Of a DNA stretch of 64,000 nucleotides, positions 2,984 to 48,295 are shown piece by piece. Position 1 is the stretch's first letter, and each line of letters starts with the position of its first letter. Both the position numbers and the translations under genes were made by a program. The notes beneath the pieces are model-generated. The model was not told where the DNA came from. It did no database searches and saw only the letters and a program-made list of their open reading frames with translations. Source of the stretch: Marchantia polymorpha subsp. ruderalis (taxonomy: Eukaryota > Streptophyta > Marchantiopsida > Marchantiales > Marchantiaceae); assembly GCA_037833965.1 (NCBI GenBank), contig AP031355.1, forward strand, positions 28,731,501 to 28,795,500. Reading direction: 5' to 3'.

Positions 2984-3283
2984 TGTGGTACCCCACTTTT
3001 GGCAATTTTGAGGAAATTAAAACATTTTTGGAAAACTGTACCCTGGCAGCATTGTAAATAGCCTTCGGTACATCAAAACGGAGTGAATCCGGAAGAACGC
3101 GGGGATTCTCGAGGGATCTTGTAGAATCTGGGATTTGGGGTGCAGCAGTAAGGACAGGCACCACCCTCCCTGCGAGCTCTGCAGTTAGGATCCCTACGAC
3201 GCAAGGCGCAAAACCCGCCTTCGGAGGTTGCGTCCGCGGCTGTAGGGAAACCCTCCATAATTAGGTCAACCCTCGGGCGCCTT

Positions 3284-3362
3284 GACCAAGTTAGGGTCCC
3301 GTTGGAAAGAGCTCGACGCACTGATTCCAACGAGTCCAAGAACGCTTGGAACGGATGAGGAC
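3284..3362 (+). repeat. Single copy of the LTR sub-repeat
   Basis: The block containing CCGTTGGAAAGAGCTCG and CCAAGAACGCTTGGAACGG is the reverse complement of a unit that occurs 4-5 times in the minus-strand LTRs of H (21360-22490) and S (29128-30530). A, B and C carry one unit, so unit copy number separates LTR subfamilies. Function unknown; a position in U3 would suit an enhancer. Confidence 0.6.
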
Positions 3363-3490
3363 TTAGGGAGTTATCACTATTGGAAGAAACGGAGGCGGTC
3401 GCCTACGGCGGAAAGAGTTCGCCACCGGCGCGAATTCCGCCTACGCGGAAGGGGGAATCAAGTTTTGTCCTATGCGCGGACGAAGGCGTT

Positions 3491-3506
3491 CGCCTGTGCA
3501 CAGGCG
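3491..3506. repeat. 16-bp perfect palindrome CGCCTGTGCACAGGCG
   Basis: Perfect palindrome recurring through U3 and inside the U3 ORF in every copy. Here it is in non-coding U3. Copies B and C carry an extra palindrome a little downstream in the same region that A lacks. Confidence 0.8.
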
Positions 3507-4209
3507 AAGTAGGGTTAGGGGAGGCGCGAAGTCCGCCTACGCACAGGCGCTTCGGCGTCGGCGGAAAATCCGCCTTGGGCCCTAGAAATGCGCCTTGTGA
3601 GGTAGAAAGTGTACGACGCCTTCCGCGCCAGCGCAGTGCCGCGTACGGCGGAAGAGCCGCCAGAGTAATCAAATCAGTACGGACCATGCGGACGGGACGG
3701 GTGGATGCGCTCTTGGACGGACGGAGTTGCGGCGGCGGAAGCGCCGACGAAGAAACAAGGAACGGACAGACTGGACGGAGACGGCTGACCACGGTCAACG
3801 CCTTCCGCGCCAGCGCAGCGCCGCGCGCGGAATTCGCCTGCGCACAGGCGACCGCATGTGCACAGGAGGATGAAGTTCCGTGCCGGCGGAGCATCCGCCG
3901 AGGCTCCTGCCTGCGCACAGGCAGGAGTTGAACTTTTGTCCGACATGCGGACACACGCGTCAAGGCAGAGGGGGATTGGCCGAGGGGCGGTACGAACAAG
4001 TGTACCGCGCAAGGCGGAAAACTCGCCTTCGGCGCTACGCCCCCATGTTCGCGGGGTAATACGCTCGCGGAGTTCAAATCCGCCAATTCGAGCGTGAGAG
4101 TTTAATCGACGACGGCGGAGCGTGAAGCCGCGCGTGAGAGCGAAGACCGTTCCAGCGTACAGCCGGCGCGGCCATCAAGTGAGACGTTCTTCACGAGCAA
4201 GGGCCGACC

Positions 4210-7062
4210 ATGACCTTCGACCGGGCGGCGGAGAACGTCCCATTCTTGAATTCGCGATTCCAATCTCTTGTGCGCGCTGCGCGCATCCATCTGCTGGCTG
4301 CTAAACATTCTCGACGTCGTCGCACAGGAGATTTCTTGTTGATTGAGGGAGAAGTGAATGCGCGTGATTTGAAATTGAGGGCGATTAGAGTTTGCCGAGA
4401 GAGAAAGAAGCTCGGGCGGTGCGGAAGTAGAATGAGCGGGCGAGCGAACCCCAGGAACGCAATGACGAGACCGAGCAGATTGCGGATGGTGCCACTTCGC
4501 CTACCACAGAACGGGCTGCGCGCTTTCGAGGAGCGCTTAATAGCAAGAAAGCTCGATTTCTTGCTATGGGGATGGAACTACATCTGTGCGAATATGGTGC
4601 GCGAGTGGCTAGAGCCACAGGGACCACCCTCGCGCGGATTGCGTCCGCATGTTGATCGGTGGACAGTCCAAGATTGGGCGCAGGCGTTGGGAAGATGTGC
4701 TGGCATGCCAGGGCATCTCCTTTTCGACAGTGAGAGCATCAAGGTGACCAAGCAGGAAGAGGCGCAATTTGTGGAGTTGTTCAAGACCGGGAGGTCTACC
4801 AAGAATGGGTACAGGACCCGTGATTACAAGGATCGATTTCGCCGGACTTTGTCCGCGGCGCTGATGCAATTACTGCAGCCGCACCGCGCCTGCTACATCA
4901 CATTGTGGCAGGTCTCTTTTGTGGAGTGCGTCATCGAGGGAACTCCAATTCACTGGGCGAGCATCCTGCACAGGGTGATGCGACAGCACGCGTTTGAGGA
5001 GAAGGGGGGAACTCTAAACCATCTTTCTCCTTTCCTCATCAATTTTTATCGACAGCGGAATTGTTTGACAGCGGCGGAGCTTGAACATTTTCCGCCATTG
5101 TCCATCGACCATCCCGGGAAGTATGTGCGGGAGAATGAGGTCGACACTGATGCAGAGGAGTCACCGACTTCTACCCCATCAAGGCGGAGGGACGAAGGGA
5201 GACACACTCCTGCAGCACGAGTGCCGCGGAAGCGGCGATGGAGGGAAGAGTCTGAAGAGGAGCAGCATCAAGAACCCTCTGCTCCCATTCGACCGCGGCC
5301 GCTGTGCGAGTCATACAGCCGGCCGAAGCAGAAGGCACGCAGACTGGTGTTACCAGCCGACAGTGCGGACACGGCGACGATTGCGACGGAGAAAGGAAGT
5401 GCGTCGCCAGAGAAGCATGAGGAAGCGCGGACGACCGCAGGAGCAACGGGCCACGCTGCAACCTCGACGGGAGAGAGGCCGCCTACGGGCCAAGGGCCTC
5501 CGGAGTTACCACGTGCGATGCGGACAGATGTTCCGTTTGCGCACAGACGAGCCTCCGCGGACGGACGAGCCTCCGCGGACAGGCGATCACAAGTGGACGT
5601 GGATCTACGCTTACGCGTGGGAAGGAGCAGTCCGCCTGTGCACAGGCGCTCACCTGTGCACAGGTCGCCTGTGCACAGGACACCTCCACACGTGCCGCCT
5701 GTGCACAGGCAAGAATCACCCCCGTTCCAACGTAGGAAGGGGAAGGAGCCGGCGGAAGAACCGCCTACGAGACACCGGCCCTCGGGGCCAGACCCTCCGG
5801 CGCACCACGCGCCGCAATTTGCGCCTTCGGCGCCAGGGCCTTCGAGCCGAGGAGATACGAGCAGGGAGCGTGCGGAGGCCGCACCATCGGCGGGAAGTCC
5901 GCCGATAGATGCGCCTTCGGCGGTAGGGCCTATAGGCCAAGGGACATCGGGCGAGCGGCCCCCGGCCATGTCGCCTTCGGCGATGGATGTCCGCGGCGCT
6001 ACGCCTGCGGCGGACAAGGCGCCGGCAATTGCGCCTGCGCACGGGCCGGGCACAGCCCCCACGGACCGATCAAGGGAGCAGCAACAGACGGAGGAGCGGA
6101 GTGACTGTCCGCGGGATGAAATTTCGATGCGCGATGCGCAATCAAACCCCGCGCAGCCACCCTCCGCTCGATCGCCTTCGGCGGCGGGCGACGGCGGCAG
6201 AGAGGACGCGGTAGACAACCAACACGCGAGCGACGGGGATGCCGCACGGGTACATTCACCTTCCGCCTTAGACATTTTGGCGACGAGCAGCGAGGCTGCA
6301 GCCGTGCCTTCGCAGGCAGCACACGTCGATGACGTGCAGCCCCACTCGGGGCAGTCGCCGACGCAATCAATGGCGACTGAAATTCTCCACTCGGATGATG
6401 ACGACGGAGGCTCCACGGAAGAAATGTCAGGAGCAGAAGACACCGAGGAGGAGGATGAGGAAATTGTTGGAGCGCCGGCGGCGGCGCTCTCTGAGCAGGT
6501 GATTCCGTTGCTGAGGTACTTGGATCGCAAGGTCGATAAATACGCCGACCCACTCCAGCCGGGATCTTACATCGAGTTAGTGCGCAGGCGGACTCGCACT
6601 AAAGTCCACACCAGCAAGCTGTTAACTAGAGTGGACCAGGAGTTGAGGGAATTGAAGGAGAAGCATGCATGCTTGTGGGGTCAGTATAAACTTAATCAGA
6701 AATTCTACAAGCACTCCGAGAAGATGAAGGATGAGAAACTGGACGAGCTCACCAAGGAGCAGGTGAAGGCGCAGGAGAAACTCACACTGCGTGAGTTTGA
6801 ATTGCGCGCAGCCGGGTTGTTGTCAGGCGACAGTAGGAGTCGGCGGAAGGTAGCAAAGAAGCTCGATGCCTTTCTGTCGAAGGCACAGGATACCATGTCC
6901 GCCCTCGAAGTGGAGGTGTCCGCGGCGTTGCAGCGTTTGGGACTGCGCAGTCGAGCGGAAGATTGGCAGGGTAGGGAGTTAGTGCGCGGCAGTCGGCCGC
7001 GCAGGAGACGTAGTACAGGTTCCGCGGAGTGTAGTGTAGCGTGGTTCCGTGCAGGCGTGTAG
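4210..7062 (+). CDS. U3 ORF of element A, 5' LTR copy (950 aa, unknown protein)
   Basis: I do not recognise a named gene. It begins with ATG in a fair context (A at -3) and lies wholly inside U3. Residues ~1-95 are basic. Residues ~95-300 form a conserved tryptophan-rich globular core (REWLEP, HLLFDSES, GTPIHWA, KGGTLNHLSP) whose pattern recalls, from memory, the 'putative plant transposon protein' domain (PF20167-like). Residues ~310-750 are a Pro/Arg/Ser/Ala-rich, probably disordered linker with repeated PVHR units encoded by palindromes, then an acidic run. Residues ~760-870 are charged and coiled-coil-like, with a conserved tail (TLREFELRAA, LGLRSR) and an Arg-rich end. Relative to C it lacks 96 codons of the coiled coil, in frame. 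It has no gag, protease, RT or envelope features that I can see. As the 5' copy it lies upstream of the element promoter. Confidence 0.75.
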   Translation: MTFDRAAENVPFLNSRFQSLVRAARIHLLAAKHSRRRRTGDFLLIEGEVNARDLKLRAIRVCRERKKLGRCGSRMSGRANPRNAMTRPSRLRMVPLRLPQNGLRAFEERLIARKLDFLLWGWNYICANMVREWLEPQGPPSRGLRPHVDRWTVQDWAQALGRCAGMPGHLLFDSESIKVTKQEEAQFVELFKTGRSTKNGYRTRDYKDRFRRTLSAALMQLLQPHRACYITLWQVSFVECVIEGTPIHWASILHRVMRQHAFEEKGGTLNHLSPFLINFYRQRNCLTAAELEHFPPLSIDHPGKYVRENEVDTDAEESPTSTPSRRRDEGRHTPAARVPRKRRWREESEEEQHQEPSAPIRPRPLCESYSRPKQKARRLVLPADSADTATIATEKGSASPEKHEEARTTAGATGHAATSTGERPPTGQGPPELPRAMRTDVPFAHRRASADGRASADRRSQVDVDLRLRVGRSSPPVHRRSPVHRSPVHRTPPHVPPVHRQESPPFQRRKGKEPAEEPPTRHRPSGPDPPAHHAPQFAPSAPGPSSRGDTSRERAEAAPSAGSPPIDAPSAVGPIGQGTSGERPPAMSPSAMDVRGATPAADKAPAIAPAHGPGTAPTDRSREQQQTEERSDCPRDEISMRDAQSNPAQPPSARSPSAAGDGGREDAVDNQHASDGDAARVHSPSALDILATSSEAAAVPSQAAHVDDVQPHSGQSPTQSMATEILHSDDDDGGSTEEMSGAEDTEEEDEEIVGAPAAALSEQVIPLLRYLDRKVDKYADPLQPGSYIELVRRRTRTKVHTSKLLTRVDQELRELKEKHACLWGQYKLNQKFYKHSEKMKDEKLDELTKEQVKAQEKLTLREFELRAAGLLSGDSRSRRKVAKKLDAFLSKAQDTMSALEVEVSAALQRLGLRSRAEDWQGRELVRGSRPRRRRSTGSAECSVAWFRAGV
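5633..5712. repeat. Cluster of palindromes inside the U3 ORF
   Basis: Four CCTGTGCACAGG cores in 80 bp, read as repeated PVHR peptides. C has five here (37254-37343), so the array changes size by whole codons. Confidence 0.75.
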
Positions 7063-7098
7063 CGTAGTGCAGTGTAGTGCTAGGTAGGACTTAGAAGG

Positions 7099-7107
7099 TA
7101 TAAAATA
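7099..7107 (+). promoter_or_regulatory. TATA box of element A, 5' LTR
   Basis: TATAAAATA 36 bp after the U3 ORF stop, the only good TATA box I see in the LTR. It predicts a genomic RNA start near 7130, which places the U3 ORF upstream of the promoter in this LTR and near the 3' end of the RNA in the other. Hairpin 7111-7127 follows at once. Confidence 0.7.
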
Positions 7108-7110
7108 GTT

Positions 7111-7127
7111 CCAGGCGTTTTGCCTGG
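7111..7127 (+). other. Promoter-proximal hairpin CCAGGC-GTTTT-GCCTGG
   Basis: Perfect 6-bp stem with a 5-nt loop directly after the TATA box, present in A, B, C and S. H has CAAGGC/GCCTTG, where a C-G pair has become A-T on both sides. The covariation supports a conserved structure, either in RNA just after or around the transcript start, or in DNA. Confidence 0.6.
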
Positions 7128-8069
7128 GGTTCTTTCCCATCAGAAGTGCAGATCAGGAACCCATTTCCTTTGCGTGTTTGTGTCCTTGAGTTCTGTCACC
7201 ACGCACGAGGAGTTACAACTTAGCGTTCCGCATTTTGTAGCTGAAGGCCTTCGGCCGAATGTTCAGAGCTAGTCCATTGGTTAGAGACTTGAGTAGTTCG
7301 GATCTGCACCTGCGGGTGACTGCCGATGCTCAGAGCCAGTGACTAGTTAGATACTTGAACAGTTTCGCCCCTACACCTTCGAGTGTTCCTTTCTGTTTGT
7401 ACTCCCTTGGGATTTTTCCCCTGAATGCCAAAGTGAAGTTTTGCTACTTCGTGTAAGCCTTGGTTGTAAATTCAGGTTACGCTGCAGCAGGTGCTTTGAG
7501 GGTAACCCCTGTAGTATTTCTGGAAATGACAAGTGCCTGAGAATTCAAACTCTTCAATAGACTGTTGTTGTGTTACTGGAATGTTTCACAGTGAGTCCTT
7601 CAGTGCGGACCTGTGTTCTCTGCGCGTTTTGTGAGTTGAGAGTGTTGTTCACCGCGTATGAGTGACTTCGATCCGAAGTAGGCAGTCCAAACCGGGTTTC
7701 CTACGCTAGCAGCAAGCTAGTGGAAGCGTTGTAAAAGCCGGAGTTGGAAGTCACTACCCGCAGCTTCGCTGAGTGTACTCTTGAGAGACTTCCCCCCTGA
7801 AATCTTGAGTAGAGGTCCTAACGGATCTCTGGGTTGTGTTTCTGTAGTTTCAGGTGTGTGTGTGTGTGTGTGTACGCTGCACTGTGCGACCTCCGAGTGC
7901 GCTCCGAGTGGACACTTGCAGTATTTCTGGGAGTGACAGTCGCCTGAGAATTCAAACTCATCAATAGTCTGTTAAACGTGACACTTTGTACCCTGTGTGT
8001 TCCTCTGTCCCTGTGGATTCGACCTTTCTACCACTATATTGCAGTTTTAGCCTTTAGTGGGTTATTACA
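7128..8069 (+). other. R-U5 leader of element A, non-coding
   Basis: About 0.94 kb without a convincing gene. It contains two similar blocks with GTTCAGAGCTAG / GCTCAGAGCCAG and a duplicated block with GAATTCAAACTC. A (GT)n tract at about 7855-7873 varies in length among LTR copies. The R/U5 boundary cannot be placed from sequence alone. Confidence 0.6.
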
Positions 8070-8091: not shown

Positions 8092-8109
8092 TGGCGCCGC
8101 TGCCGGGGA
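8092..8109 (+). other. Primer-binding site, tRNA-Asp type (element A)
   Basis: TGGCGCCGCTGCCGGGGA is complementary to a tRNA-Asp-like 3' end; the plant consensus from memory is TGGCGCCGTTGCCGGGG, one mismatch. It starts 22 nt after the LTR end, an unusually wide gap, which is conserved in B (32846) and C (40016). Confidence 0.85.
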
Positions 8110-8144: not shown

Positions 8145-8186
8145 ATGCTCGGTGAATGTCGACTGGGGCTAGCGGGAGCAACCTAA
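8145..8186 (+). other. Overlapping 13-codon upstream ORF before gag
   Basis: An ATG with G at -3 opens a 13-codon frame that ends in TAA at 8184-8186 and overlaps the gag ATG (8156) in another frame. The gag ATG itself has T at -3, a weak context. The same arrangement is kept in B and C. It may limit gag translation through leaky scanning; it could also be chance. Confidence 0.4.
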
Positions 8187-10990
8187 GTGCTAGAGCTGTC
8201 CGCAGGTTCCGACGAGATTCAGAGAAGGCCGTGGAAGAGACACGGCGTCAAAACAAGAAAACACCAAAAAGAGTACCTAAGCCTAGTTCGGCCGACATCC
8301 TTGGGGAACCTACCCCCGGCGACTCGGAACCAAACTTGGTGCTTACAGTTCTACTAGATATTCCTTGCACGGACCCGCCTCGTGAATTAGAAACGACCGC
8401 CCGAGAACCGTCGACAGACACACCGATGGCGGACGGACAAGCCAATGTGCGGCTACCTCAGCCGATTACTAAACATTCCTACCCAAAGTATAAAGGGAGT
8501 GGGGATGACGACGATGCAGATTCATACATCAAGTTGTTCGAATCGGTGTCTATTGCCAATCGCGAGATCGCAGACGACGACCGACTAAGGATCTTTCCAA
8601 GCCTTCTGCGGAAGAAAGCGAGGAGTTGGTACAATCACGAGAGCATCGATCCGACTGGGTTGACAACATGGGCCCAGCTGAAGGAGAAGTTCCTTCGCCG
8701 CTTCCGCGAGCTCGGCTACGACAGCCGGGTTTTGACAAAGTTACGTAATTTGCAGCGAGAGAAGAAGGAGAGTCTGCGTGACTACACTGAGAGATTTCTG
8801 GACCTCCTTGACAGAATACCGAAAACAGGACCAGGGTCCCCTTTCTCGGTACAACAAGCTGTGGATTGGTACGTGACCGGTTTAACTCGGGAGATGGAGA
8901 CTTTTTGCCGACGCAGCAAGTGCGACACTATTGAGGATGTGATTGCATCGGCAGAAGCCTTCGAAACTTCCACTCTCAACCGAAGAGGGAGAGAGAGACG
9001 GGAGTCGAAGGAGCGAAAACCGAAGGGAGGGCGAAGACGACGTAGAGGTACAACTCCGTCATCGGAGGAATCGTCTTCGGACGAGAACCGTTCCTCATCC
9101 GAAGAAGAGGAAACCTCATCGTCGGAGGAGGAGAAGAAGAGGAAGAAGCATGGGGCAGCGAAGAAAAAGGGCACCCGACGAGTGACTACGGACAGAGCGC
9201 CGGGAGACATAGCCTCGAAGATGGAGACCCTTGTGAAGGACTTCGCCGATCTCAAGGTTCAAGTGGTAGGCGGGCATGATCGCCGAAAATCACCCGGGAG
9301 AGTGCGAGCGAACTTATGGTGTACTACGTGCGGGGCGGTGGGACATGCAAACACCGAGTGCCTTACCACCCGTCCGTCATATCCAGTCAACGCAGTAGAG
9401 TGGGCACAACCGTACTATGGAGAGCACCCCCAGTACTATGGAGAGGCTAGCGAAGAGACAGCCTACGCCGTCCAGTCGGTTCCTACCCCTACTGCAGTTT
9501 CAGCAATGCAAGTCCCACGATATCATCCGGTGGATCGGGCCACTACAGTACCCGTGAGGCGGAGAGCACCTCCAGGGACGTTTGACCCACCGCCACCGCG
9601 AGCTTGTTATAATTGCGGGGAAGTTGGACACTTCTCACCGCAGTGTCCCCATCCAAAAAGGCGAAACGATTATGTTCCGACATGTAGTAATTGCAAGAAG
9701 ACCGGGCATACTGCGCCAGAGTGTGATCAGCCACCAGTCCCTCGGCCAGCGGTACGATTTGTGAACCCTCCTGCCAAGGAGGACGTCCAAGTTAACCAGG
9801 TCGAAGTAGGTTCAGACGGGGATGACGAAGACGAAGAATGGCCGGCGGAAGAGGTTATGTGCGCACGGGTCGAAACTCGTAGTTCCAAGAAATCGAAGGA
9901 GCAAGAGCGTGACACTCGCAAGCACGAACGGAGAACCGACGACCGGACGGGAAAAGGGAAGGAGAAGACATCCAGCAAGTCCGACTTGCGACCTGCACGG
10001 AAGCCTTCGGCTACGCGAGAGGCACCAGCAGTGCGCCCCCAGACAGCAGTCGAGGACGAGCCAGTACGCTTGCTGAAACGGGACTATGCTCCGGATATCC
10101 GCAACGAGGTAACCAACCTGTTGAAGGAAGCGATCCGCACTCAAAAGGACCCACCGCGGCCAGACTTGACATCCTTCCTTGGGGCGAAGTTGGCAGCCAC
10201 CGTGGAACCTCACAGAGCGTCGCCGCCGACCCCGGCGACCCAACGCGCCCACTATGACTTGGTCGAAGATCTCGGGAGTCGAAAAGTGAACATCACGTTC
10301 AAGCAGCTCTTGGAGGACAATAAGACGTATCGGAGAATGTTGATGCTTTCGCTACGGCGTCCGCGGAAGCCGCGCGCATCCACATCCTCTCAAGTATATC
10401 AAGTGGAGAGCGAAGACCAAGGGCCACCAGAGATCGATGTGGAAATAGCAGGGTGTTGTGTACGCAGGGTGCCAATCGACTCTGGATCAGGAGTCAACAT
10501 AATGACGGAGGATACCGCGAGAGCCTTGGGGTTCAGTCAATACGAACCCTCGAAGCGTGTGTTGAGATTAGCGGATCAGACGCGGAGAATGCCTGCAGGT
10601 ATGCTGCGCAATGTCAAGACAATCATCGGGGGTGTGGACTTTCGGTTGACGTATATCATCCTTCAACCGATGATGAAGCAGGGCTATGACGTTCTGCTCG
10701 GGCGACCATGGCTATATGGCGCACAAGTCAGATGTGATTGGCGAAGGCATCGCCTTAAGTTTCCCCATCCTTCGGAACCGACCAAAACCATTACGGTGCC
10801 CTGGAATAGGGTCAGACACGAAGGAGAGACCCCATCGACAAGTGCAGGTTACACATCGGGCGGGGACAGTGAGACGACCGCGCGATCGGATTCCAGTGGT
10901 ACCGAATCCGATTATTTCGTGGGATTCGTTGCCTGCTGTTCGGTGGGAGAAGAAGAAGAGCCGGAAGCTATTCAGCCGGAAGACGAATAG
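8156..10990 (+). CDS. gag-pr: Gag-protease polyprotein of element A (944 aa)
   Basis: Capsid/nucleocapsid precursor with C-terminal aspartic protease. Residues ~95-260 are the retrotransposon gag core (FPSLLRKKARSWY, LKEKFLRRF, YTERFLDLLDR). Residues ~290-340 are Ser/Glu/Lys-rich. There are three CX2CX4HX4C zinc knuckles, at ~388 (CTTCGAVGHANTEC), ~484 (CYNCGEVGHFSPQC) and ~510 (CSNCKKTGHTAPEC). Three is more than the usual one or two. The protease has catalytic Asp at residue 775 in IDSGSGVN and a later GYDVLLGRPWL block. A TGA lies immediately upstream in frame, so 8156 is the first possible start. It ends in UAG, with pol continuing in the same frame, so the product is probably Gag-PR with some Gag-PR-Pol by readthrough. 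Confidence 0.92.
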   Translation: MSTGASGSNLSARAVRRFRRDSEKAVEETRRQNKKTPKRVPKPSSADILGEPTPGDSEPNLVLTVLLDIPCTDPPRELETTAREPSTDTPMADGQANVRLPQPITKHSYPKYKGSGDDDDADSYIKLFESVSIANREIADDDRLRIFPSLLRKKARSWYNHESIDPTGLTTWAQLKEKFLRRFRELGYDSRVLTKLRNLQREKKESLRDYTERFLDLLDRIPKTGPGSPFSVQQAVDWYVTGLTREMETFCRRSKCDTIEDVIASAEAFETSTLNRRGRERRESKERKPKGGRRRRRGTTPSSEESSSDENRSSSEEEETSSSEEEKKRKKHGAAKKKGTRRVTTDRAPGDIASKMETLVKDFADLKVQVVGGHDRRKSPGRVRANLWCTTCGAVGHANTECLTTRPSYPVNAVEWAQPYYGEHPQYYGEASEETAYAVQSVPTPTAVSAMQVPRYHPVDRATTVPVRRRAPPGTFDPPPPRACYNCGEVGHFSPQCPHPKRRNDYVPTCSNCKKTGHTAPECDQPPVPRPAVRFVNPPAKEDVQVNQVEVGSDGDDEDEEWPAEEVMCARVETRSSKKSKEQERDTRKHERRTDDRTGKGKEKTSSKSDLRPARKPSATREAPAVRPQTAVEDEPVRLLKRDYAPDIRNEVTNLLKEAIRTQKDPPRPDLTSFLGAKLAATVEPHRASPPTPATQRAHYDLVEDLGSRKVNITFKQLLEDNKTYRRMLMLSLRRPRKPRASTSSQVYQVESEDQGPPEIDVEIAGCCVRRVPIDSGSGVNIMTEDTARALGFSQYEPSKRVLRLADQTRRMPAGMLRNVKTIIGGVDFRLTYIILQPMMKQGYDVLLGRPWLYGAQVRCDWRRHRLKFPHPSEPTKTITVPWNRVRHEGETPSTSAGYTSGGDSETTARSDSSGTESDYFVGFVACCSVGEEEEPEAIQPEDE

Positions 10991-10996
10991 CAATTA
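10988..10996 (+). promoter_or_regulatory. Leaky stop UAG CAA UUA between gag-pr and pol
   Basis: The gag stop is followed by CAA UUA, identical to the type I readthrough context UAG CAR YYA known from tobamoviruses. Pol follows in the same frame. The nonamer is conserved in C (42909) and B (60222). The first pol codons offer GTG but no nearby ATG, so readthrough is the simplest route to Pol. Confidence 0.8.
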
Positions 10997-13831
10997 ACTG
11001 TGGGACTGGGAAGGAGTGAGACGAGTCACACCGAGGGCATTGTCGACCCTAGTGACTGTCACGAAGTACAACTCAGTCCCGACAAGTGCTTGAAGGTATC
11101 AAGCGCAGTGAGAGGAGACGAGCTAAGGAAAGTACAGGCATTCCTTAGCCATTATGTCGACGTCTTCGCCTGGAAGATCGAAGACATGAAGGGGATACCT
11201 GCACGGTATGGGGAACACCGTATCGATTTACTGGACGACTCAGTACCCATACGACAGCGCCAGTATCGCCTCAACCCAAAATACTCCTTGCTAGTTAAGG
11301 AGGAGATAGATAAGTACTTGAGTGCTGGTATTATTTACCCTGTGCTCAGCAGTGAGTGGGTGTCGCCGATTGTTATCGTACCCAAGAAGTTGACGGGTAA
11401 GATACGAGTGTGTCAGGATTTCCGGAAGTTGAATGCAGCAACACGCAAGGATCATCACCCGTTACCATTCACGGATGCCATTCTAGACCATGTCGCAGGA
11501 CATGAATGTTATAGCTTCCTGGATGGGTTCTCAGGTTACAATCAGGTGTCTATCCGAGAACAGGACAAGGATAAAACTACGTTCACAACCGACTGGGGAA
11601 CTTACGCATACCACAAGATGCCCTTCGGTCTGTGCAACGCGCCTGCCACCTTTCAACGGATGATGACCAATATCTTCCAGGAACAACTGAGGAAGTTCCT
11701 GGAAATATTCATAGATGACTTCTGTGTCTTTGGGAAGCGGTCTGAACACCTAAGTCACTTGAAGCAGACCTTCGATAAATGTAGAGAGAGCAGTTTATCA
11801 CTGCATCCCGAGAAGTGCTTTTTCTTTATGACTAGTGGGATCTTGTTGGGTCATCGGGTCTCGGCAGACGGCATTGCGGTGGACATCGAGAAGGTCAAGG
11901 TTATACTCGAGCTTGAGCCACCCACGAATCTAAGAGAGCTGCGAGCATTCCTGGGTCATGTGGGCTACTACCGAAGATTCATACACCTGTATGCAATACT
12001 GGCGGCGGACCTGACCAAGTTGTTGAAGAAGGACGAGCCTTATGCTTGGGGTGCGAACCAGCAGTCAGCATTTGAGGCTCTTAAAGCGAAACTCACGACT
12101 GCTCCCGTACTAAGGAGTCCAGACTGGAATCGACCATTCCATGTTTACGTTGACACATCTGCATTCGCCATCGGTGTAGTACTGAGTCAAAAGGATGACA
12201 ACAAAAAGGACTACCCGATCTACTTCGCGAGCCGACAGCTGTCTCTAGCAGAGCGGAAGTACACCACGACGGAGAGAGAAGCGTTGGGGATGGTGTACTC
12301 CTGTAAAAAGTTCCGTCACTACCTAATCTGCTACGAGTTTGTGTTCCATGTGGACCACTACGCATTGCAACACCTAGTCAAGAAAGCCGACCTATCCGGT
12401 CGGATCGCCAGGTGGGTGTTGTTACTACAAGAGTTCACCTACACAGTCCAGACCAGGAAAGGGGTGCACCACGAAAATGCGGATTACTTGTCCCGATTAT
12501 GGACCCAGCCGACAGAGGAGGAATTGGTGGATGATTTTCCAGATGAAGAGTTATTTCAGTTGTCTGCAGGACATGAGTCCCGCTATGCCGACCTGTATCG
12601 ATATCTGCTAACCCTCCAGTGTCCCGTAGGCTTGGATTTGGAACAGCGAACTGTCTTTATTCATAAGGCAGGCCCGTACCAACTCCAGCAGGGGGTTTTG
12701 TTCAAGAAGATGGCAGATGAGCGCTTATGCAGATGCCTGGAGGAATCAGAGGTACCAAGAATAGTGAGTGCGATGCATACAGAGGAGGCGGGTGGACACT
12801 ATGCCACCAGGAACACGGTCACAAAGATTCTAAATGCGGGGTATTGGTGGCCGACCATGTTTAAGGATGTTCTCGATTACATCCGCAAGTGCGACAGTTG
12901 CCAGAGGACGGGGAGACCGACGCCTACAACACGCTGGCCCCTGACTCCCATCATGCCTCTAGCACCTTTCGAAAAGTGGGGCATTGACTTTGTAGGGCCG
13001 ATACAACCAGTGACTAGAAGTACACGAAGGCGCTACATTCTGGTAGCAACGGACTACGCCACCAAAATGGTAGAGGCCAGGGCCACCAGAAGGGATGATG
13101 CTGCCACAGTGGCAGCCTTCTTGTTTGAGTCGATCATCACACGCTACGGATGTCCCTTAGAGCTAGTCAGCGACCGGGGCACGCATTTTCTGAATCAGAT
13201 CATCGAAGATCTGACACGGTATTTCCACATCAAGCACCGGAAGACTACTCCATACAATCCCAAGGCAAATGGACTGACGGAGAAGTCCAATGGTCTGCTG
13301 TGTAAAATACTACTCAAGGTCACGGTGAATCACGCTCACGACTGGGATACGAAGCTAGCAGCCGCTCTATGGGCGTACCGGACAGCTGAGAAGATCACGA
13401 CCAAACAGACACCATACTTTCTGGTGTATGGGCAACACCCGATCCTCCCGATCGAATTTGAAGTACCCACCCAACGAACGTTGGATTTGCAGAGGATGGG
13501 CGCAGAGGAGAGTCAGCTCTACAGGTTACAGGAGGTCACGCTGCTGGATGAGAGGAGACGAGACGCCGAAGATCGCACCAGGAAAATCCAGCTCCGCCGA
13601 AAGGAGAGATACGATAAAAAGATCAAACCGGTACTCCTGCAGGCGGGTGATTTGGCATTGCTCTACGACAGCAGGCATGCCAGATTCCCAGGCAAACTGC
13701 ACCTAAGATGGATGGGACCTTACAGGGTTGTCGAAGTCTTCCCGAATGGATCCATCCAACTTGCGGACCTGGCCGGCGATTTGTTAGGCACCCGAGTGAA
13801 CGGGTGGCGGTTGAAGAAATACCACATGTGA
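10991..13831 (+). CDS. pol: Pol: reverse transcriptase-RNase H-integrase of element A (946 codons)
   Basis: Counted from the codon after UAG. The RT catalytic motif FIDDF is at ~239-243, preceded by KMPFGLCNAPATFQRMM. RNase H is at ~380-500 (YVDTSAFAIG, TTEREALGM, HVDHYAL). The integrase has an HHCC zinc region at ~590-645 (CDSCQ) and a DD35E triad from GIDFVGPI (~666), LVSDRGTHF (~728) and the Glu of NGLTEKSNG (~764). A C-terminal GPY-type module follows (WMGPYRVVEVF). There is no chromodomain. The first in-frame ATG is about 65 codons in, within the pre-RT region, which argues for expression as a Gag-PR-Pol readthrough product. The frame is intact throughout. Confidence 0.93.
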   Translation, partial: QLTVGLGRSETSHTEGIVDPSDCHEVQLSPDKCLKVSSAVRGDELRKVQAFLSHYVDVFAWKIEDMKGIPARYGEHRIDLLDDSVPIRQRQYRLNPKYSLLVKEEIDKYLSAGIIYPVLSSEWVSPIVIVPKKLTGKIRVCQDFRKLNAATRKDHHPLPFTDAILDHVAGHECYSFLDGFSGYNQVSIREQDKDKTTFTTDWGTYAYHKMPFGLCNAPATFQRMMTNIFQEQLRKFLEIFIDDFCVFGKRSEHLSHLKQTFDKCRESSLSLHPEKCFFFMTSGILLGHRVSADGIAVDIEKVKVILELEPPTNLRELRAFLGHVGYYRRFIHLYAILAADLTKLLKKDEPYAWGANQQSAFEALKAKLTTAPVLRSPDWNRPFHVYVDTSAFAIGVVLSQKDDNKKDYPIYFASRQLSLAERKYTTTEREALGMVYSCKKFRHYLICYEFVFHVDHYALQHLVKKADLSGRIARWVLLLQEFTYTVQTRKGVHHENADYLSRLWTQPTEEELVDDFPDEELFQLSAGHESRYADLYRYLLTLQCPVGLDLEQRTVFIHKAGPYQLQQGVLFKKMADERLCRCLEESEVPRIVSAMHTEEAGGHYATRNTVTKILNAGYWWPTMFKDVLDYIRKCDSCQRTGRPTPTTRWPLTPIMPLAPFEKWGIDFVGPIQPVTRSTRRRYILVATDYATKMVEARATRRDDAATVAAFLFESIITRYGCPLELVSDRGTHFLNQIIEDLTRYFHIKHRKTTPYNPKANGLTEKSNGLLCKILLKVTVNHAHDWDTKLAAALWAYRTAEKITTKQTPYFLVYGQHPILPIEFEVPTQRTLDLQRMGAEESQLYRLQEVTLLDERRRDAEDRTRKIQLRRKERYDKKIKPVLLQAGDLALLYDSRHARFPGKLHLRWMGPYRVVEVFPNGSIQLADLAGDLLGTRVNGWRLKKYHM

Positions 13832-13855: not shown

Positions 13856-13868
13856 GAGGAGGGGAGCA
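13856..13868 (+). other. Polypurine tract of element A
   Basis: GAGGAGGGGAGCA directly before the 3' LTR start TGTGGTACC. This purine run is the expected plus-strand primer. The same site is at 63090 in B, and in C (45777) it has one extra G. Confidence 0.85.
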
Positions 13869-15094: not shown

Positions 15095-17947
15095 ATGACC
15101 TTCGACCGGGCGGCGGAGAACGTCCCATTCTTGAATTCGCGATTCCAATCTCTTGTGCGCGCTGCGCGCATCCATCTGCTGGCTGCTAAACATTCTCGAC
15201 GTCGTCGCACAGGAGATTTCTTGTTGATTGAGGGAGAAGTGAATGCGCGTGATTTGAAATTGAGGGCGATTAGAGTTTGCCGAGAGAGAAAGAAGCTCGG
15301 GCGGTGCGGAAGTAGAATGAGCGGGCGAGCGAACCCCAGGAACGCAATGACGAGACCGAGCAGATTGCGGATGGTGCCACTTCGCCTACCACAGAACGGG
15401 CTGCGCGCTTTCGAGGAGCGCTTAATAGCAAGAAAGCTCGATTTCTTGCTATGGGGATGGAACTACATCTGTGCGAATATGGTGCGCGAGTGGCTAGAGC
15501 CACAGGGACCACCCTCGCGCGGATTGCGTCCGCATGTTGATCGGTGGACAGTCCAAGATTGGGCGCAGGCGTTGGGAAGATGTGCTGGCATGCCAGGGCA
15601 TCTCCTTTTCGACAGTGAGAGCATCAAGGTGACCAAGCAGGAAGAGGCGCAATTTGTGGAGTTGTTCAAGACCGGGAGGTCTACCAAGAATGGGTACAGG
15701 ACCCGTGATTACAAGGATCGATTTCGCCGGACTTTGTCCGCGGCGCTGATGCAATTACTGCAGCCGCACCGCGCCTGCTACATCACATTGTGGCAGGTCT
15801 CTTTTGTGGAGTGCGTCATCGAGGGAACTCCAATTCACTGGGCGAGCATCCTGCACAGGGTGATGCGACAGCACGCGTTTGAGGAGAAGGGGGGAACTCT
15901 AAACCATCTTTCTCCTTTCCTCATCAATTTTTATCGACAGCGGAATTGTTTGACAGCGGCGGAGCTTGAACATTTTCCGCCATTGTCCATCGACCATCCC
16001 GGGAAGTATGTGCGGGAGAATGAGGTCGACACTGATGCAGAGGAGTCACCGACTTCTACCCCATCAAGGCGGAGGGACGAAGGGAGACACACTCCTGCAG
16101 CACGAGTGCCGCGGAAGCGGCGATGGAGGGAAGAGTCTGAAGAGGAGCAGCATCAAGAACCCTCTGCTCCCATTCGACCGCGGCCGCTGTGCGAGTCATA
16201 CAGCCGGCCGAAGCAGAAGGCACGCAGACTGGTGTTACCAGCCGACAGTGCGGACACGGCGACGATTGCGACGGAGAAAGGAAGTGCGTCGCCAGAGAAG
16301 CATGAGGAAGCGCGGACGACCGCAGGAGCAACGGGCCACGCTGCAACCTCGACGGGAGAGAGGCCGCCTACGGGCCAAGGGCCTCCGGAGTTACCACGTG
16401 CGATGCGGACAGATGTTCCGTTTGCGCACAGACGAGCCTCCGCGGACGGACGAGCCTCCGCGGACAGGCGATCACAAGTGGACGTGGATCTACGCTTACG
16501 CGTGGGAAGGAGCAGTCCGCCTGTGCACAGGCGCTCACCTGTGCACAGGTCGCCTGTGCACAGGACACCTCCACACGTGCCGCCTGTGCACAGGCAAGAA
16601 TCACCCCCGTTCCAACGTAGGAAGGGGAAGGAGCCGGCGGAAGAACCGCCTACGAGACACCGGCCCTCGGGGCCAGACCCTCCGGCGCACCACGCGCCGC
16701 AATTTGCGCCTTCGGCGCCAGGGCCTTCGAGCCGAGGAGATACGAGCAGGGAGCGTGCGGAGGCCGCACCATCGGCGGGAAGTCCGCCGATAGATGCGCC
16801 TTCGGCGGTAGGGCCTATAGGCCAAGGGACATCGGGCGAGCGGCCCCCGGCCATGTCGCCTTCGGCGATGGATGTCCGCGGCGCTACGCCTGCGGCGGAC
16901 AAGGCGCCGGCAATTGCGCCTGCGCACGGGCCGGGCACAGCCCCCACGGACCGATCAAGGGAGCAGCAACAGACGGAGGAGCGGAGTGACTGTCCGCGGG
17001 ATGAAATTTCGATGCGCGATGCGCAATCAAACCCCGCGCAGCCACCCTCCGCTCGATCGCCTTCGGCGGCGGGCGACGGCGGCAGAGAGGACGCGGTAGA
17101 CAACCAACACGCGAGCGACGGGGATGCCGCACGGGTACATTCACCTTCCGCCTTAGACATTTTGGCGACGAGCAGCGAGGCTGCAGCCGTGCCTTCGCAG
17201 GCAGCACACGTCGATGACGTGCAGCCCCACTCGGGGCAGTCGCCGACGCAATCAATGGCGACTGAAATTCTCCACTCGGATGATGACGACGGAGGCTCCA
17301 CGGAAGAAATGTCAGGAGCAGAAGACACCGAGGAGGAGGATGAGGAAATTGTTGGAGCGCCGGCGGCGGCGCTCTCTGAGCAGGTGATTCCGTTGCTGAG
17401 GTACTTGGATCGCAAGGTCGATAAATACGCCGACCCACTCCAGCCGGGATCTTACATCGAGTTAGTGCGCAGGCGGACTCGCACTAAAGTCCACACCAGC
17501 AAGCTGTTAACTAGAGTGGACCAGGAGTTGAGGGAATTGAAGGAGAAGCATGCATGCTTGTGGGGTCAGTATAAACTTAATCAGAAATTCTACAAGCACT
17601 CCGAGAAGATGAAGGATGAGAAACTGGACGAGCTCACCAAGGAGCAGGTGAAGGCGCAGGAGAAACTCACACTGCGTGAGTTTGAATTGCGCGCAGCCGG
17701 GTTGTTGTCAGGCGACAGTAGGAGTCGGCGGAAGGTAGCAAAGAAGCTCGATGCCTTTCTGTCGAAGGCACAGGATACCATGTCCGCCCTCGAAGTGGAG
17801 GTGTCCGCGGCGTTGCAGCGTTTGGGACTGCGCAGTCGAGCGGAAGATTGGCAGGGTAGGGAGTTAGTGCGCGGCAGTCGGCCGCGCAGGAGACGTAGTA
17901 CAGGTTCCGCGGAGTGTAGTGTAGCGTGGTTCCGTGCAGGCGTGTAG
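15095..17947 (+). CDS. U3 ORF of element A, 3' LTR copy (950 aa, unknown protein)
   Basis: Same encoded protein as the 5' copy at 4210-7062. This copy lies 1.26 kb after the pol stop and upstream of the LTR TATA box at 17984. A transcript begun in the 5' LTR and ended in R of this LTR would carry it as the 3'-terminal cistron, where retroviruses keep env or accessory genes. No separate promoter is evident between pol and its ATG, so expression would need a spliced or internally initiated RNA; neither is provable here. For domains see the 5' copy. Confidence 0.75.
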   Translation: MTFDRAAENVPFLNSRFQSLVRAARIHLLAAKHSRRRRTGDFLLIEGEVNARDLKLRAIRVCRERKKLGRCGSRMSGRANPRNAMTRPSRLRMVPLRLPQNGLRAFEERLIARKLDFLLWGWNYICANMVREWLEPQGPPSRGLRPHVDRWTVQDWAQALGRCAGMPGHLLFDSESIKVTKQEEAQFVELFKTGRSTKNGYRTRDYKDRFRRTLSAALMQLLQPHRACYITLWQVSFVECVIEGTPIHWASILHRVMRQHAFEEKGGTLNHLSPFLINFYRQRNCLTAAELEHFPPLSIDHPGKYVRENEVDTDAEESPTSTPSRRRDEGRHTPAARVPRKRRWREESEEEQHQEPSAPIRPRPLCESYSRPKQKARRLVLPADSADTATIATEKGSASPEKHEEARTTAGATGHAATSTGERPPTGQGPPELPRAMRTDVPFAHRRASADGRASADRRSQVDVDLRLRVGRSSPPVHRRSPVHRSPVHRTPPHVPPVHRQESPPFQRRKGKEPAEEPPTRHRPSGPDPPAHHAPQFAPSAPGPSSRGDTSRERAEAAPSAGSPPIDAPSAVGPIGQGTSGERPPAMSPSAMDVRGATPAADKAPAIAPAHGPGTAPTDRSREQQQTEERSDCPRDEISMRDAQSNPAQPPSARSPSAAGDGGREDAVDNQHASDGDAARVHSPSALDILATSSEAAAVPSQAAHVDDVQPHSGQSPTQSMATEILHSDDDDGGSTEEMSGAEDTEEEDEEIVGAPAAALSEQVIPLLRYLDRKVDKYADPLQPGSYIELVRRRTRTKVHTSKLLTRVDQELRELKEKHACLWGQYKLNQKFYKHSEKMKDEKLDELTKEQVKAQEKLTLREFELRAAGLLSGDSRSRRKVAKKLDAFLSKAQDTMSALEVEVSAALQRLGLRSRAEDWQGRELVRGSRPRRRRSTGSAECSVAWFRAGV

Positions 17948-24747: not shown

Positions 24748-25991
24748 TGTGGTACCCCACTTTTGGCAATTTTGAGGAAATTAAAACATTTTTGGAAAAC
24801 TGTACCCTGGCAGCATTGTAAATAGCCTTCGGTACATCAAAACGGAGTGAATCCGGAAGATCGCGGGGATTCTCGAGGGATCTTGTAGAATCTGGGATTT
24901 GGGGTGCAGCAGTGAGGACAGGCACCACCCTCCCTGCGAGCTCTGCAGTTAGGACCCCTACGACGCAAGGCGCAAAACCCGCCTTCGGAGGTTGCGTCCG
25001 CGGCTGTAGGGAAACCCTCCATAATTAGGTCAACCCTCGGGCGCCTTGACCAAGTTAGGGTCCCGTTGGAAAGAGCTCGACGCACTGATTCCAACGAGTC
25101 CAAGAACGCTTGGAACGGATGAGGACTTAGGGAGTTATCACTATTGGAAGAAACGGAGGCGGTCGCCTACGGCGGAAAGAGTTCGCCACCGGCGCGAATT
25201 CCGCCTACGCGGAATGGGGAATCAAGTTTTGTCCTATGCGCGGACGAAGGCGTTCGCCTGTGCACAGGCGAAGTAGGGTTAGGGGAGGCGCGAAGTCCGC
25301 CTACGCACAGGCGCTCGCCTGTGCACAGGCGCTTCGGCGTCGGCGGAAAATCCGCCTTGGGCCCTAGAAATGCGCCTTGTGAGGTAGAAAGTGTACGGCG
25401 CCTTCCGCGCCAGCGCAGCGCCGCATACGGCGGAAGAGCCGCCAGAGTAATCAAATCGGTACGGACCATGCGGACGGGACGGGTGGATGCGCTCTTGGAC
25501 GGACGGAGTTGCGGCGGCGGAAGCGCCGACGAAGAGACAAGGAACGGACAGACTGCACGGAGACGGCTGACCACGGTCAACGCCTTCCGCGCCAGCGCGA
25601 CGCCGCGCACGGAATTCGCCTGCGCACAGGCGACCGCCTGTGCACAGGAGGATGAAGTTCCGTGCCGGCGGAGCATCCGCCGAGGCTCCCGCCTGCGCAC
25701 AGGCAGGAGTTGAACTTTTGTCCGACATGCGGACACACACGTCAAGGCAGAGGGGGATTGGCCGAGGGGCGGTACGAACAAGTGTACCGCGCAAGGCGGA
25801 AAACTCGCCTTCGGCGCTACGCCCCCATGTCCGCGGGGTAATACGCTCGCGGAGTTCAAATCCGCCAATTCGAGCGTGAGAGTTTAATCGACGACGGCGG
25901 AGCGTGAAGCCGCGCGTGAGAGCGAAGACCGTTCCAGCGTATAGCCGGCGCGGCCATCAAGTGAGACGTTCTTCACGAGCAAGAGCCGACC

Positions 25992-27636
25992 ATGACCTTC
26001 GACCGGGCGGCGGAGAACGTCCCATTCTTGAATTCGCGATTCCAATCTCTTGTGCGCGCTGCGCGCATCCATCTGCTGGCTGCTAAACATTCTCGACGTC
26101 GTCGCACAGGAGATTTCTTGTTGATTGAGGGAGAAGTGAATGTGCGTGATTTGGAATTGAGGGCGATTAGAGTTTGCCGAGAGAGAAAGAAGCTCGGGCG
26201 GTGCGGGAGTAGAATGAGCGGGCGAGCGAACCCCAGGAACGCAATGTCGAGACCGAGCAGATTGCGGATGGTGCCACTTCGCCTACCACAGAACGGGCTG
26301 CGCGCTTTCGAGGAGCGCTTAATAGCAAGAAAGCTCGATTTCTTGCTATGGGGATGGAACTACATCTGTGCGAATATGGTGCGCGAGTGGCTAGAGCCAC
26401 AGGGACCACCCTCGCGCGGATTGCGTCCGCATGTTGATCGGTGGACAGTCCAAGATTGGGCGCAGGCGTTGGGAAGATGTGCTGGCATGCCAGGACATCT
26501 CCTTTTAGAGAGTGAGAGCATCAAGGTGACCAAGCAGGAAGAGGCACAATTTGTGGAGCTGTTCAAGACCGGGAGGTCTACCAAGAATGGGTACAGGACC
26601 CGTGATTACAAGGATCGATTTCGCCGGACTTTGTCCGCGGCGCTGATGCAATTACTGCAGCCGCACCGCGCCTGCTACATCACATTGTGGCAGGTCTCTT
26701 TTGTGGAGTGTGTCATCGAGGGAACTCCAATTCACTGGGCGAGCATCCTGCACAGGGTGATGCGACAGCACGCGTTTGAGGAGAAGGGGGGAACTCTAAA
26801 CCATCTTTCTCCTTTCCTCATCAATTTTTATCGACAGCGGAATTGTTTGACAGCGGCGGAGCTTGAACATTTTCCGCCATTGTCCATCGACCATCCCGGG
26901 AAGTATGTGCGGGAGAATGAGGTCGACACTGATGCAGAGGAGTCACCGACTTCTACCCCATCAAGGCGGAGGGACGAAGGGAGACACACTCCTGCAGCAC
27001 GAGTGCCGCGGAAGCGGCGATGGAGGGAAGAGTCTGAAGAGGAGCAGCATCAAGAACCCTCTGCTCCCATTCGACCGCGGCCGCTGTGCGAGTCATACAG
27101 CCGGCCGAAGCAGAAGGCACGCAGACTGGTGTTACCAGCCGACAGTGCGGACACGGCGACGATTGCGACGGAGAAAGGAAGTGCGTCGCCAGAGAAGCAT
27201 GAGGAAGCGCGGACGACCGCAGGAGCAACGGGCCACGCTGCAACCTCGACGGGAGAGAGGCCGCCTACGGGCCAAGGGCCTCCGGAGTTACCACGTGCGA
27301 TGCGGACAGATGTTCCGTTTGCGCACAGACGAGCCTCCGCGGACGGACGAGCCTCCGCGGACAGGCGATCACAAGTGGACGTGGATCTACGCTTACGCGT
27401 GGGAAGGAGCAGTCCGCCTATGCACAGGCGCTCACCTGTGCACAGGTCGCCTGTGCACAGGACACCTCCACACGTGCCGCCTGTGCACAGGCAAGAATCA
27501 CCCCCGTTCCAACGTAGGAAGGGGAAGGAGCCGGCGGAAGAACCGCCTACGAGACACCGGCCCTCGGGGCCAGACCCTCCGGCGCACCACGCGCCGCAAT
27601 TTGCGCCTTCGGCGCCAGGGCCTTCGAGCCGAGGAG
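25992..27636 (+). pseudogene. U3 ORF of element B, N-terminal part (interrupted)
   Basis: Encodes the basic N-terminus, conserved core and palindrome-rich linker as in A, then is cut at 27636 by solo LTR S, which gives a stop codon after a few bases. The second part resumes at 30750. AGGAG is duplicated at the break. Confidence 0.85.
27632..27636. repeat. Target-site duplication of S, left copy (AGGAG)
   Basis: AGGAG is repeated at 30745-30749. The uninterrupted sequence in A (around 5850) has it once. Confidence 0.9.
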
Positions 27637-28582
27637 TGTAATAACCCACTAAAGGCTAAAACTGCAATATAGTGGTAGAAAGGTCGAACCCACAGGGACA
27701 GAGGAACACACAGGGTACAAAGTGTCACGTTTTAACAGACTATTGAGGAGTTTGAATTCTCAGGCGACTTTCACTCCCAGAAATACTGCAAGTGTCCACT
27801 CGGAGCGCACTCGGAGGTCGCACAGTGCAGCGTAACACACACACACACACACACACCTGAAACTACAGAAACACAACCCAGAGATCCGTTAGGACCTCTA
27901 CTTCAAGATTTCAGGGGGAAAGTCTCTCACGAGCACACTCGGCAAAGCTGCGGGCAGTGACTTCCAACTCCGGCTTTTACAACGCTTCCACTAGCTTGCT
28001 GCTAGTGTAGGAAACCCGGTTTGGACTACCTACTTCGGATCGAAGTCACTCAGACGCGGTGAACAACACCCTCAACTCACAAAACGCGCAGAGAACACAG
28101 GTCCACACTGAAGGACTCACTGTGAAACATTCCAGTAACACAACAACAGTCTATTGAAGAGTTTGAATTCTCAGGCACTTGTCATTCCCAGAAATACTAC
28201 AGGGGTTACCCTCAAGGCACCTGCTGCAGCGTAACCTGAATTTACAACCAAGGCTTACACGAAGTAGCAAAACTTCACTTTGGCATTCAGGGGAAAAATC
28301 CCAAGGAGTACAATCAGAAAGAAACACTCGAAGGTGTAGGGGCGAAACTGTTCAAGTATCTAACTAGTCACTGGCTCTGAGCATCGGCAGTCACCCGCAG
28401 GTGCAGATCCGAACTACTCAAGTCTCTAACCAATGTACTAGCTCTGAACATTCGGCCGAAGCCCTTCAGCTACAAAATGCGGAACGCTAAGTTGTAACTC
28501 CTCGTGCGTGGTGACAGAACTCAAGGACACAAACACGCAAAGGAAATGGGTTCCTGATCTATACTTCTGATGGGAAAGAACC

Positions 28583-28611
28583 CCAGGCAAAACGCCTGGA
28601 ACTATTTTATA
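28583..28611 (-). promoter_or_regulatory. TATA box and hairpin of solo LTR S
   Basis: Minus-strand TATAAAATA at 28611-28603, followed by the CCAGGC/GCCTGG hairpin (28599-28583). The core promoter is conserved although the upstream U3 differs from A/B/C. Confidence 0.6.
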
Positions 28612-29127
28612 CCTTCTAAGTCCTACCTAACACTACACTGCAATGCCATGGTGCGAGCCGCAACAGATCCTACACCTGAGGAGTCGGCGGCTGCTGCCTT
28701 CCCCTCTAACTTACAACCTAAATCTAACCCTAACCCTAAATCTGAATCCTAAGCCTACTGTACAGAGCCGCCAGCGCCTTACCATCCAAGATCTGAGGCT
28801 GAAAATTTGCAGGCAGGCGTGGCCGGCCGAGATCAACGGCCCCACAAAATTTCAGATCCATCCGACCGTCCATCGCAAAGATATGGGCCCCGCAAGATCT
28901 CTGAACCTAGGCCAAAATTCCTTCTCCAAAATCCGAGGACTGTGGGTTCCACGCGTCCTACACGCAAGCCGCCTACTCGCAGGCCGCCACTGCCACACCT
29001 GAACATTCTACATTCATGACCACCCGATCCTCGCCGGAGGAAATCTCCTTCCGCGCACCGCCGAATGCGTCCAACCGCCAAAGACGCACTTCCACACCTT
29101 GTCAATCTCTAACAGTCACCCCGACGC

Positions 29128-30530: not shown

Positions 30531-30744
30531 CTACCGCCGAAGGTGCTCGAAGCTGATCCTGCAGCATGAACCGCCCGTTCCGTCCCAAGCGTCCCACTGT
30601 GGCCTAAGCCCAAAACCCCTTGACTGTCCTCGATCCTCTTTTTACTCTGGTTTCGCGTACTGATTACTATTTACAGCTGCTGCCGCGGTACTTACTATTC
30701 AAAAATGTTTTAGTTCCGACAAAAACAAAAAGTGGGTTACCACA

Positions 30745-48284: not shown

Positions 48285-48295
48285 CCAAGATTTCA

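What the first reader, a model, noticed from the sequence alone, without database searches (positions are those of the whole stretch)
4210..7062. A ~1000-codon gene encoded entirely inside the LTR U3 of a plant gypsy-type element
Seen: A, B and C carry a 950-1050-codon frame upstream of the TATA box within 5-kb LTRs, so each element has two copies. In the predicted RNA the 3' copy is the last cistron. Known: MMTV sag is coded in U3 and lentiviral nef overlaps U3; plant elements usually place extra ORFs between pol and the LTR or before gag. Inference: the extra gene moved into, or was engulfed by, the LTR, so every transposition delivers two copies and even solo LTRs could carry it. The protein has a conserved Trp-rich core, a disordered linker and a coiled coil.
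Basis: partly seen in the sequence, partly recalled or inferred. Interest (0 to 1): 0.88.

Follow-up and report, generated by a model that had tools for sequence, protein, structure and literature searches.

The report
Conserved gene inside retrotransposon end repeats
In a liverwort genome, an abundant family of jumping genes carries an extra protein-coding gene entirely inside its repeated ends, so a full copy holds it twice and leftover single ends can keep it; the gene shows clear signs of natural selection, but what it does is not known.

Summary
Elements A (2984-18954) and C (34585-59059) are Ty3/gypsy elements with 5.1-5.4 kb LTRs. An ORF lies wholly in U3 and ends 36 bp before the TATA box. 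The conserved start is ATG 4462, not 4210, giving 866 aa (A) and 966 aa (C). Three window copies are uninterrupted; B's is split by a solo LTR, C's 3' copy by element D. It is a real gene: A versus C shows 18 synonymous and 0 nonsynonymous differences in the core; whole-ORF dN/dS (0.205) matches gag-pro (0.207). In 11 of 25 diverged rows an LTR start lies 0.9-1.5 kb upstream. The genome has 3085 LTR starts of this type. Of 27 copies without detected stops, 13 are solo LTRs, all with identical 5-bp flanks. No Pfam, PDB or fold match; named relatives are all Marchantia polymorpha. I infer a nuclear coiled-coil protein, made from 3'-LTR RNA, acting in trans on the element's LTR or RNA; expression is untested. 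Extra ORFs of plant elements are known; my limited searches listed none inside an LTR.

The parts
2984..8069 (+). Element A, 5' LTR (5086 bp)
   Evidence: Self-BLAST 99.96% to 13869-18954; 2 differences; TSD GCTAT with 18955-18959
4462..7062 (+). U3 gene of A, 5' LTR copy, 866 aa, conserved ATG to stop
4462..5200 (+). Conserved Trp-rich core of the gene (about 246 codons)
   Evidence: 18 synonymous, 0 nonsynonymous differences A versus C; substitutions by codon position 1, 0, 17
7099..7105 (+). TATA box, U3/R promoter
8092..8109 (+). Primer binding site
8156..10990 (+). gag-pro frame of A, ending in TAG
10991..13831 (+). pol frame of A (RT, RNase H, integrase), same frame as gag-pro
13856..13864 (+). 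Polypurine tract just before the 3' LTR
   Evidence: sequence; junction pattern found 1151 times in the genome
13869..18954 (+). Element A, 3' LTR
15347..17947 (+). U3 gene of A, 3' LTR copy
24748..27636 (+). Element B, first part of its 5' LTR with the first part of its gene copy, interrupted at 27636
27637..30744 (-). Solo LTR without the gene, inserted in B's gene copy, flanked by AGGAG
34585..39993 (+). Element C, 5' LTR (5409 bp)
   Evidence: TSD CGAAG with the base after 59059
36082..38982 (+). U3 gene of C, 5' LTR copy, 966 aa
47287..58050 (+). U3 gene of C, 3' LTR copy, interrupted by element D (47415-55273)

Best explanation
Shown: U3 of this liverwort Ty3/gypsy family contains a complete gene of 866-966 codons under purifying selection. 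It lies inside the LTR also in relatives with about half the protein sequence changed, and it persists in solo LTRs. Inferred from the anatomy: the element's RNA runs from R of the 5' LTR to R of the 3' LTR, so it carries the gene once, as the last cistron (the 3' LTR copy), and reverse transcription then writes it into both LTRs. Inferred origin: a 3' extra ORF, as many plant elements have, was engulfed when a polypurine tract arose upstream of it. Inferred function (the committed guess, about 0.45): a nuclear, coiled-coil protein that acts in trans on the element's own LTR chromatin, as an anti-silencing factor or transactivator. That there is a real gene in U3 I hold at about 0.95.
For: Core A versus C 18 synonymous / 0 nonsynonymous, and pN/pS 0.012 over 28 pairs of 8 copies. 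Core dN/dS 0.06, 0.13 and 0.20 in three more diverged copies. Whole gene 0.205, gag-pro 0.207, pol 0.045. Conserved ATG in 20 of 25 rows. LTR match on both sides of the gene in L031 and at the 3' end in L032. LTR-start-like sequence 0.9-1.5 kb upstream in 11 of 25 rows. 43 of 49 listed exact LTR starts on C2 have an exact gene 25-mer 1.53-1.59 kb downstream. 13 of 27 checked copies are solo LTRs with identical 5-bp flanks. No membrane-like segment (highest 19-residue hydropathy 1.14). Basic stretches (PRKRRW, RPKQKARRL) and an acidic patch seen by eye in the alignment. Dense U3 repeats: CCTGTGCACAGG 39 times in the window, none expected, none in R-U5 or in A's internal part.
Against: No RNA, protein or cell data. 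No TATA box or AATAAA in U3 upstream of the gene in A or C. 18 of 47 scored copies have stops. Linker (pN/pS 0.33) and tail (0.22) are much less constrained than the core. A relative LTR lacks the gene. A's own copy lost 96 codons of the tail in both LTRs, so the full tail may not be needed in cis. The U3 repeats run through the gene's linker too, so they need not be binding sites. Nuclear location is read by eye only. 14 of 25 diverged rows show no clear LTR start in the stretch read.
Confidence: 0.45

Rival explanations
1. RNA-export factor: the protein is made from a spliced RNA and lets unspliced genomic RNA leave the nucleus, as CERV does for the nematode gypsy element Cer1.
For: [quoted passage not shown] The U3 gene is likewise 3'-most, named only in one genus, without membrane segment. 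A gene at the 3' end of a long RNA would need splicing or another way of starting translation.
Against: No splice data. No homology tested. It does not by itself explain why the gene is kept in the LTR.
Confidence: 0.25
2. Structural or env-like protein: a particle or envelope component in the place where retroviruses have env.
For: Last cistron, downstream of pol; coiled coil; extra ORFs of plant elements have been speculated to be env-like (PMC6317226, passages).
Against: No hydrophobic segment; no viral fold match (from a weak model).
Confidence: 0.1
3. Relic: the gene was under selection in the past but is no longer made or needed by the young copies.
For: 18 of 47 scored copies have stops; A carries a 96-codon deletion in both LTRs; an LTR without the gene exists in many-copy relatives' neighbourhood.
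Against: A-C core differences are all synonymous although A and C are young insertions (LTRs 2 of 5086 and about 5 of 5413 aligned positions different).
Confidence: 0.13
4. Chance open frame in GC-rich DNA.
For: GC-rich sequence; a 432-codon frame on the minus strand overlaps it; low-complexity linker.
Against: Codon-position pattern 1, 0, 17 in the core and length beyond 300 simulations; dN/dS; conserved start.
Confidence: 0.02

Closest known systems
Extra ORFs (eORF-3'F) of plant OTA elements (Ogre, Tat, Athila); PMC6317226, passages
   Same: Ty3/gypsy element without chromodomain match, large LTRs, additional long sense ORF 3' of pol with no homology to known domains.
   Different: There the ORFs are sorted as 5' or 3' of the polyprotein and are described as highly divergent within a lineage, with function in doubt; here the ORF is inside U3, in both LTRs, conserved across families and under measurable purifying selection.
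[not shown]
   Same: Marchantia genomes hold Tat-clade elements without the additional RNase H; no such domain was listed in pol here.
   Different: No tree was made; the passages seen do not mention an ORF in the LTR.
MMTV sag and lentiviral nef (recalled)
   Same: Gene coded in, or overlapping, U3 and hence in both LTRs.
   Different: Animal retroviruses; no sequence or fold match found; nef only overlaps U3.
CERV of Cer1, Caenorhabditis elegans; PMC10309623, passages
   Same: Lineage-specific nuclear accessory protein of a gypsy-type element from a 3' ORF (nuclear only inferred here).
   Different: [quoted passage not shown] made by splicing, known by experiment.
VANC anti-silencing proteins of VANDAL transposons; PMC10398659, abstract
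   Same: Possible analogy: element-coded protein and fast-changing short repeats in noncoding parts of the element.
   Different: DNA transposon; homology not tested; no binding shown here.

Membership tests
Ty3/gypsy LTR retrotransposon | gag, protease, RT, RNase H, integrase in that order, LTRs, PBS, PPT, target duplication | tested here: met
   Pfam matches in order in A (protease-like match just under its cut-off); LTRs and TSDs; PBS 8092
Plant Tat clade (as defined by an additional RNase H) | additional RNase H domain | tested here: not met
   [not shown]
[not shown]
   No reference sequences at hand
eORF-3'F of plant elements | ORF of 250 codons or more 3' of the polyprotein, sense | tested here: met
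   A: pol ends 13831, gene 15347-17947
[quoted passage not shown]
   Only 37 bp lie between the pol stop and the 3' LTR; the gene is in both LTRs
PF20167 (Transposase_32) | profile match | tested here: not met
   hmmscan of A, C and 32 alignment members without a match; genome search uninformative
Plant mobile domain PF10536, PF04195, ATHILA ORF-1 PF03078 | profile match | tested here: not met
   None listed among matches
U3-encoded genes such as MMTV sag | whole ORF inside U3 | tested here: met
   ORF between LTR start and TATA box; works-like only, no kinship
Env-like protein | membrane-spanning segment | tested here: not met
   Highest 19-residue mean hydropathy 1.14 in A and C
Rev/CERV-like export factor | spliced mRNA, nuclear protein needed for export of genomic RNA | not testable with these tools
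   No RNA or cell data
VANC-like anti-silencing protein | binding to element repeats and loss of methylation | not testable with these tools
   Only the presence of U3 repeats was tested

The most novel reading that the evidence does not exclude
The gene-bearing LTR is itself a protein-coding unit: 5' and solo LTRs express the protein from a promoter in the first 1.5 kb of U3 and end the RNA in R. The genome would then hold a dispersed, element-free supply of a trans-acting factor that keeps the family, and relatives whose LTRs lack the gene, active.
Probability: 0.15. Interest if true: 0.88.

Novelty: new variant of a known kind. Interest (0 to 1): 0.72.

Why it matters
The main survey of plant LTR retrotransposons asks whether their extra ORFs have any function (PMC6317226, passages). 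Here is one that is conserved, abundant and measurably selected in what is very probably a model liverwort, so it can be tested. Its place in U3 means that a full element holds two copies, and that recombination to a solo LTR removes gag and pol but leaves the gene, so LTRs usually treated as non-coding can be coding.

Tried and rejected
Chance frame: rejected by the Markov null and codon positions. Antisense frame: core substitutions follow the sense frame, and the 432-codon antisense frame has no Pfam match at E<=0.01. PF20167 and other plant transposon domains: no match; one search was uninformative. A resemblance of the core to PF20167 is a memory of mine and rests on no call. Solved structures: none at E<=1. 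Two AlphaFold models of the core were weak (mean pLDDT 48.4 and 56.7); fold searches with the second gave no match at E<=0.001 in PDB or viral libraries, so nothing is concluded. Relatives in other plants: three protein searches gave only Marchantia polymorpha names and five unnamed contig proteins; limits on length and on the number scored mean that others could be missed. Host: P0008 matches the genome at 98%, P0001 at only 89%, so species or strain is not certain.

Literature: searches (20 of 61 papers listed; 15 of 48; 1 of 1; 8 of 11; 15 of 15; 2 of 2; 10 of 396; 12 of 50; 10 of 15) and 92 (4 of 4); listings only, except the papers whose passages or abstract I cite.

Full report
What is there. 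The window lies in a 241-Mb, 9-contig genome (C6:28731501-28795500). Relatives of the protein that carry a name are all Marchantia polymorpha 'AXG93' hypothetical proteins, and one matches the genome at 98% over residues 81-710, so the host is very probably that liverwort or a near relative. Element A (2984-18954) has LTRs of 5086 bp that differ at 2 positions, flanks GCTAT, a primer binding site at 8092, a gag-pro frame (gag and zinc-knuckle matches, a protease match just under its cut-off) and a pol frame (RT, RNase H, integrase). Element C (34585-59059, flanks CGAAG) sits inside element B, and carries element D in its own 3' LTR.

The ORF. Stop-to-stop frames of 959 (A) and 1059 (C) codons fill most of U3 and end 36 bp before TATAAAA (7062 and 7099 in A). 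In 300 second-order Markov sequences of C's LTR the longest frame was 480 codons. Relatives have an ATG at the position of 4462 in 20 of 25 rows, 21 counting one that is a base off; the other four rows do not (two of the 25 rows are one locus read twice, and four are near-identical loci). I therefore take 4462 as the start: 866 aa in A, 966 aa in C. A lacks 96 codons of the tail. Of five copies in the window (A twice, C twice, B once; B's 3' LTR runs off) three are uninterrupted.

Selection. Between A and C the core (residues 81-330, 250 codons) has 18 synonymous and no nonsynonymous differences; by codon position they fall 1, 0, 17. Over 8 copies (28 pairs) pN/pS is 0.012 in the core, 0.33 in the linker, 0.22 in the tail. 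More diverged copies give core dN/dS 0.06 (X92, 157 codons), 0.13 (Y80) and 0.20 (L031); in L030 and L032 synonymous sites are saturated or nearly so. From the ATG the whole gene has dN/dS 0.205, gag-pro 0.207, pol 0.045. Stops do occur: of 47 scored genome copies, 30 have none in the main match, 29 when a stop in one copy's second match is counted.

Placement across families. L031 (49% protein identity in its best core match) matches C's LTR at its first 156 bp (69%) and through its last base, with the gene between; L032 (57%) matches through the last base. No PBS-like sequence and no gag match was found in the four stretches read. LTR-start-like sequence with at most 2 mismatches lies 0.87-1.49 kb upstream of the gene in 11 of 25 rows; of the 14 others two have a 4-mismatch match, and most of the rows offered only 1.5 kb of upstream sequence. 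One row, Y80, belongs to the closer families. The first part of U3 hardly aligns between L031 or L032 and C, while gene and R-U5 do. The locus of the annotated protein AXG93_1200s1210 also has an LTR start 1.4 kb upstream.

Numbers. With up to 2 mismatches the genome has 3085 LTR starts of this type, 1151 internal-to-LTR junctions, 1387 LTR-to-internal junctions and 3266 matches to a 25-mer of the gene; the difference suggests some hundreds of solo LTRs, roughly, since the patterns differ in stringency. Of 49 exact LTR starts listed on contig C2 up to 30.78 Mb, where the gene list ends, 43 have an exact gene 25-mer 1.53-1.59 kb downstream. I read both ends of 27 of the 30 copies without stops in the main match (left out: A's two and one with a stop in its second match): 13 are solo LTRs, all with identical 5-bp flanks, 6 are 5' LTRs, 3 are 3' LTRs, 5 could not be resolved. 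The stretch between the two matches of a copy (roughly 80 codons) was not scored for stops. It was read in full for five of the 27, among them three of the solo LTRs (L005, L007, L008), which are open throughout.

A gene-less relative. The inverted solo LTR at 27637-30744, flanked by AGGAG, has R-U5 97.7-99.0% identical to those of B and C, but C's protein finds nothing in it; three annotated gene models match it (P0002, P0060, P0073), P0002 in a part that lies before its core and that I take to be translated U3 repeats; the other two were not examined. Either the gene was lost there or U3 was exchanged.

Function. No Pfam family fits (only weak coiled-coil and low-complexity matches), no PDB relative by sequence, weak models without fold matches. 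No membrane segment. The alignment shows a conserved Trp-rich core, a fast linker with conserved basic stretches and an acidic patch, and a conserved coiled-coil-like tail (by eye). I infer a nuclear trans-acting accessory. Two precedents bracket the options: CERV of Cer1, needed for export of unspliced RNA (PMC10309623, passages), and VANC, which counters silencing at repeats (PMC10398659, abstract). U3 is full of short repeats: CCTGTGCACAGG occurs 39 times in the window against none in 100 shuffles, and CGCCTTCGGC 27 times against 0.26. That would suit the second precedent, but the repeats also run through the gene's linker, and L031 has the second motif without the first.

Noticed in passing
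10988-10990, 42909-42911, 60222-60224: gag-pro and pol are in one frame, parted by TAG followed by CAATTA in A, B and C. Of 655 genome matches to the surroundings with any codon allowed there, all 100 that were listed read TAG. It equals the tobamovirus leaky-stop context (recalled) and suggests programmed readthrough.
   Followed up: partly
27637-30744 (minus strand): Solo LTR with R-U5 97.7-99.0% like that of B and C but a U3 of repeated blocks and no gene.
   Followed up: partly
3493-6182 and other U3 stretches of the window: Short repeats CCTGTGCACAGG (39 in the window) and CGCCTTCGGC (27), far above shuffles, in U3 and the gene's linker; the first is absent from R-U5 and from A's internal part.
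   Followed up: partly
47415-55273: Element D, another Ty3/gypsy element on the minus strand with a single 1590-codon gag-pol frame and identical 858-bp LTRs, inserted in the gene copy of C's 3' LTR.
   Followed up: no
G000:C2:31345298-31390058: Five LTR starts exactly 11184 bp apart, four of them with an internal-to-LTR junction: a tandem LTR-internal array.
   Followed up: no
G000:C1:2.4-3.3 Mb: The same element pair and gene relatives recur three or four times at intervals of some hundred kb on the 5.6-Mb contig C1, as if large segments were duplicated.
   Followed up: no
protein P0042 (AXG93_4541s1020): The conserved core is joined to a different charged, coiled-coil-like tail: tail swapping in the family, or a gene-model join.
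   Followed up: no
22762-24780 (minus strand): Fragment of another pol frame (RNase H, integrase) between elements A and B.
   Followed up: no
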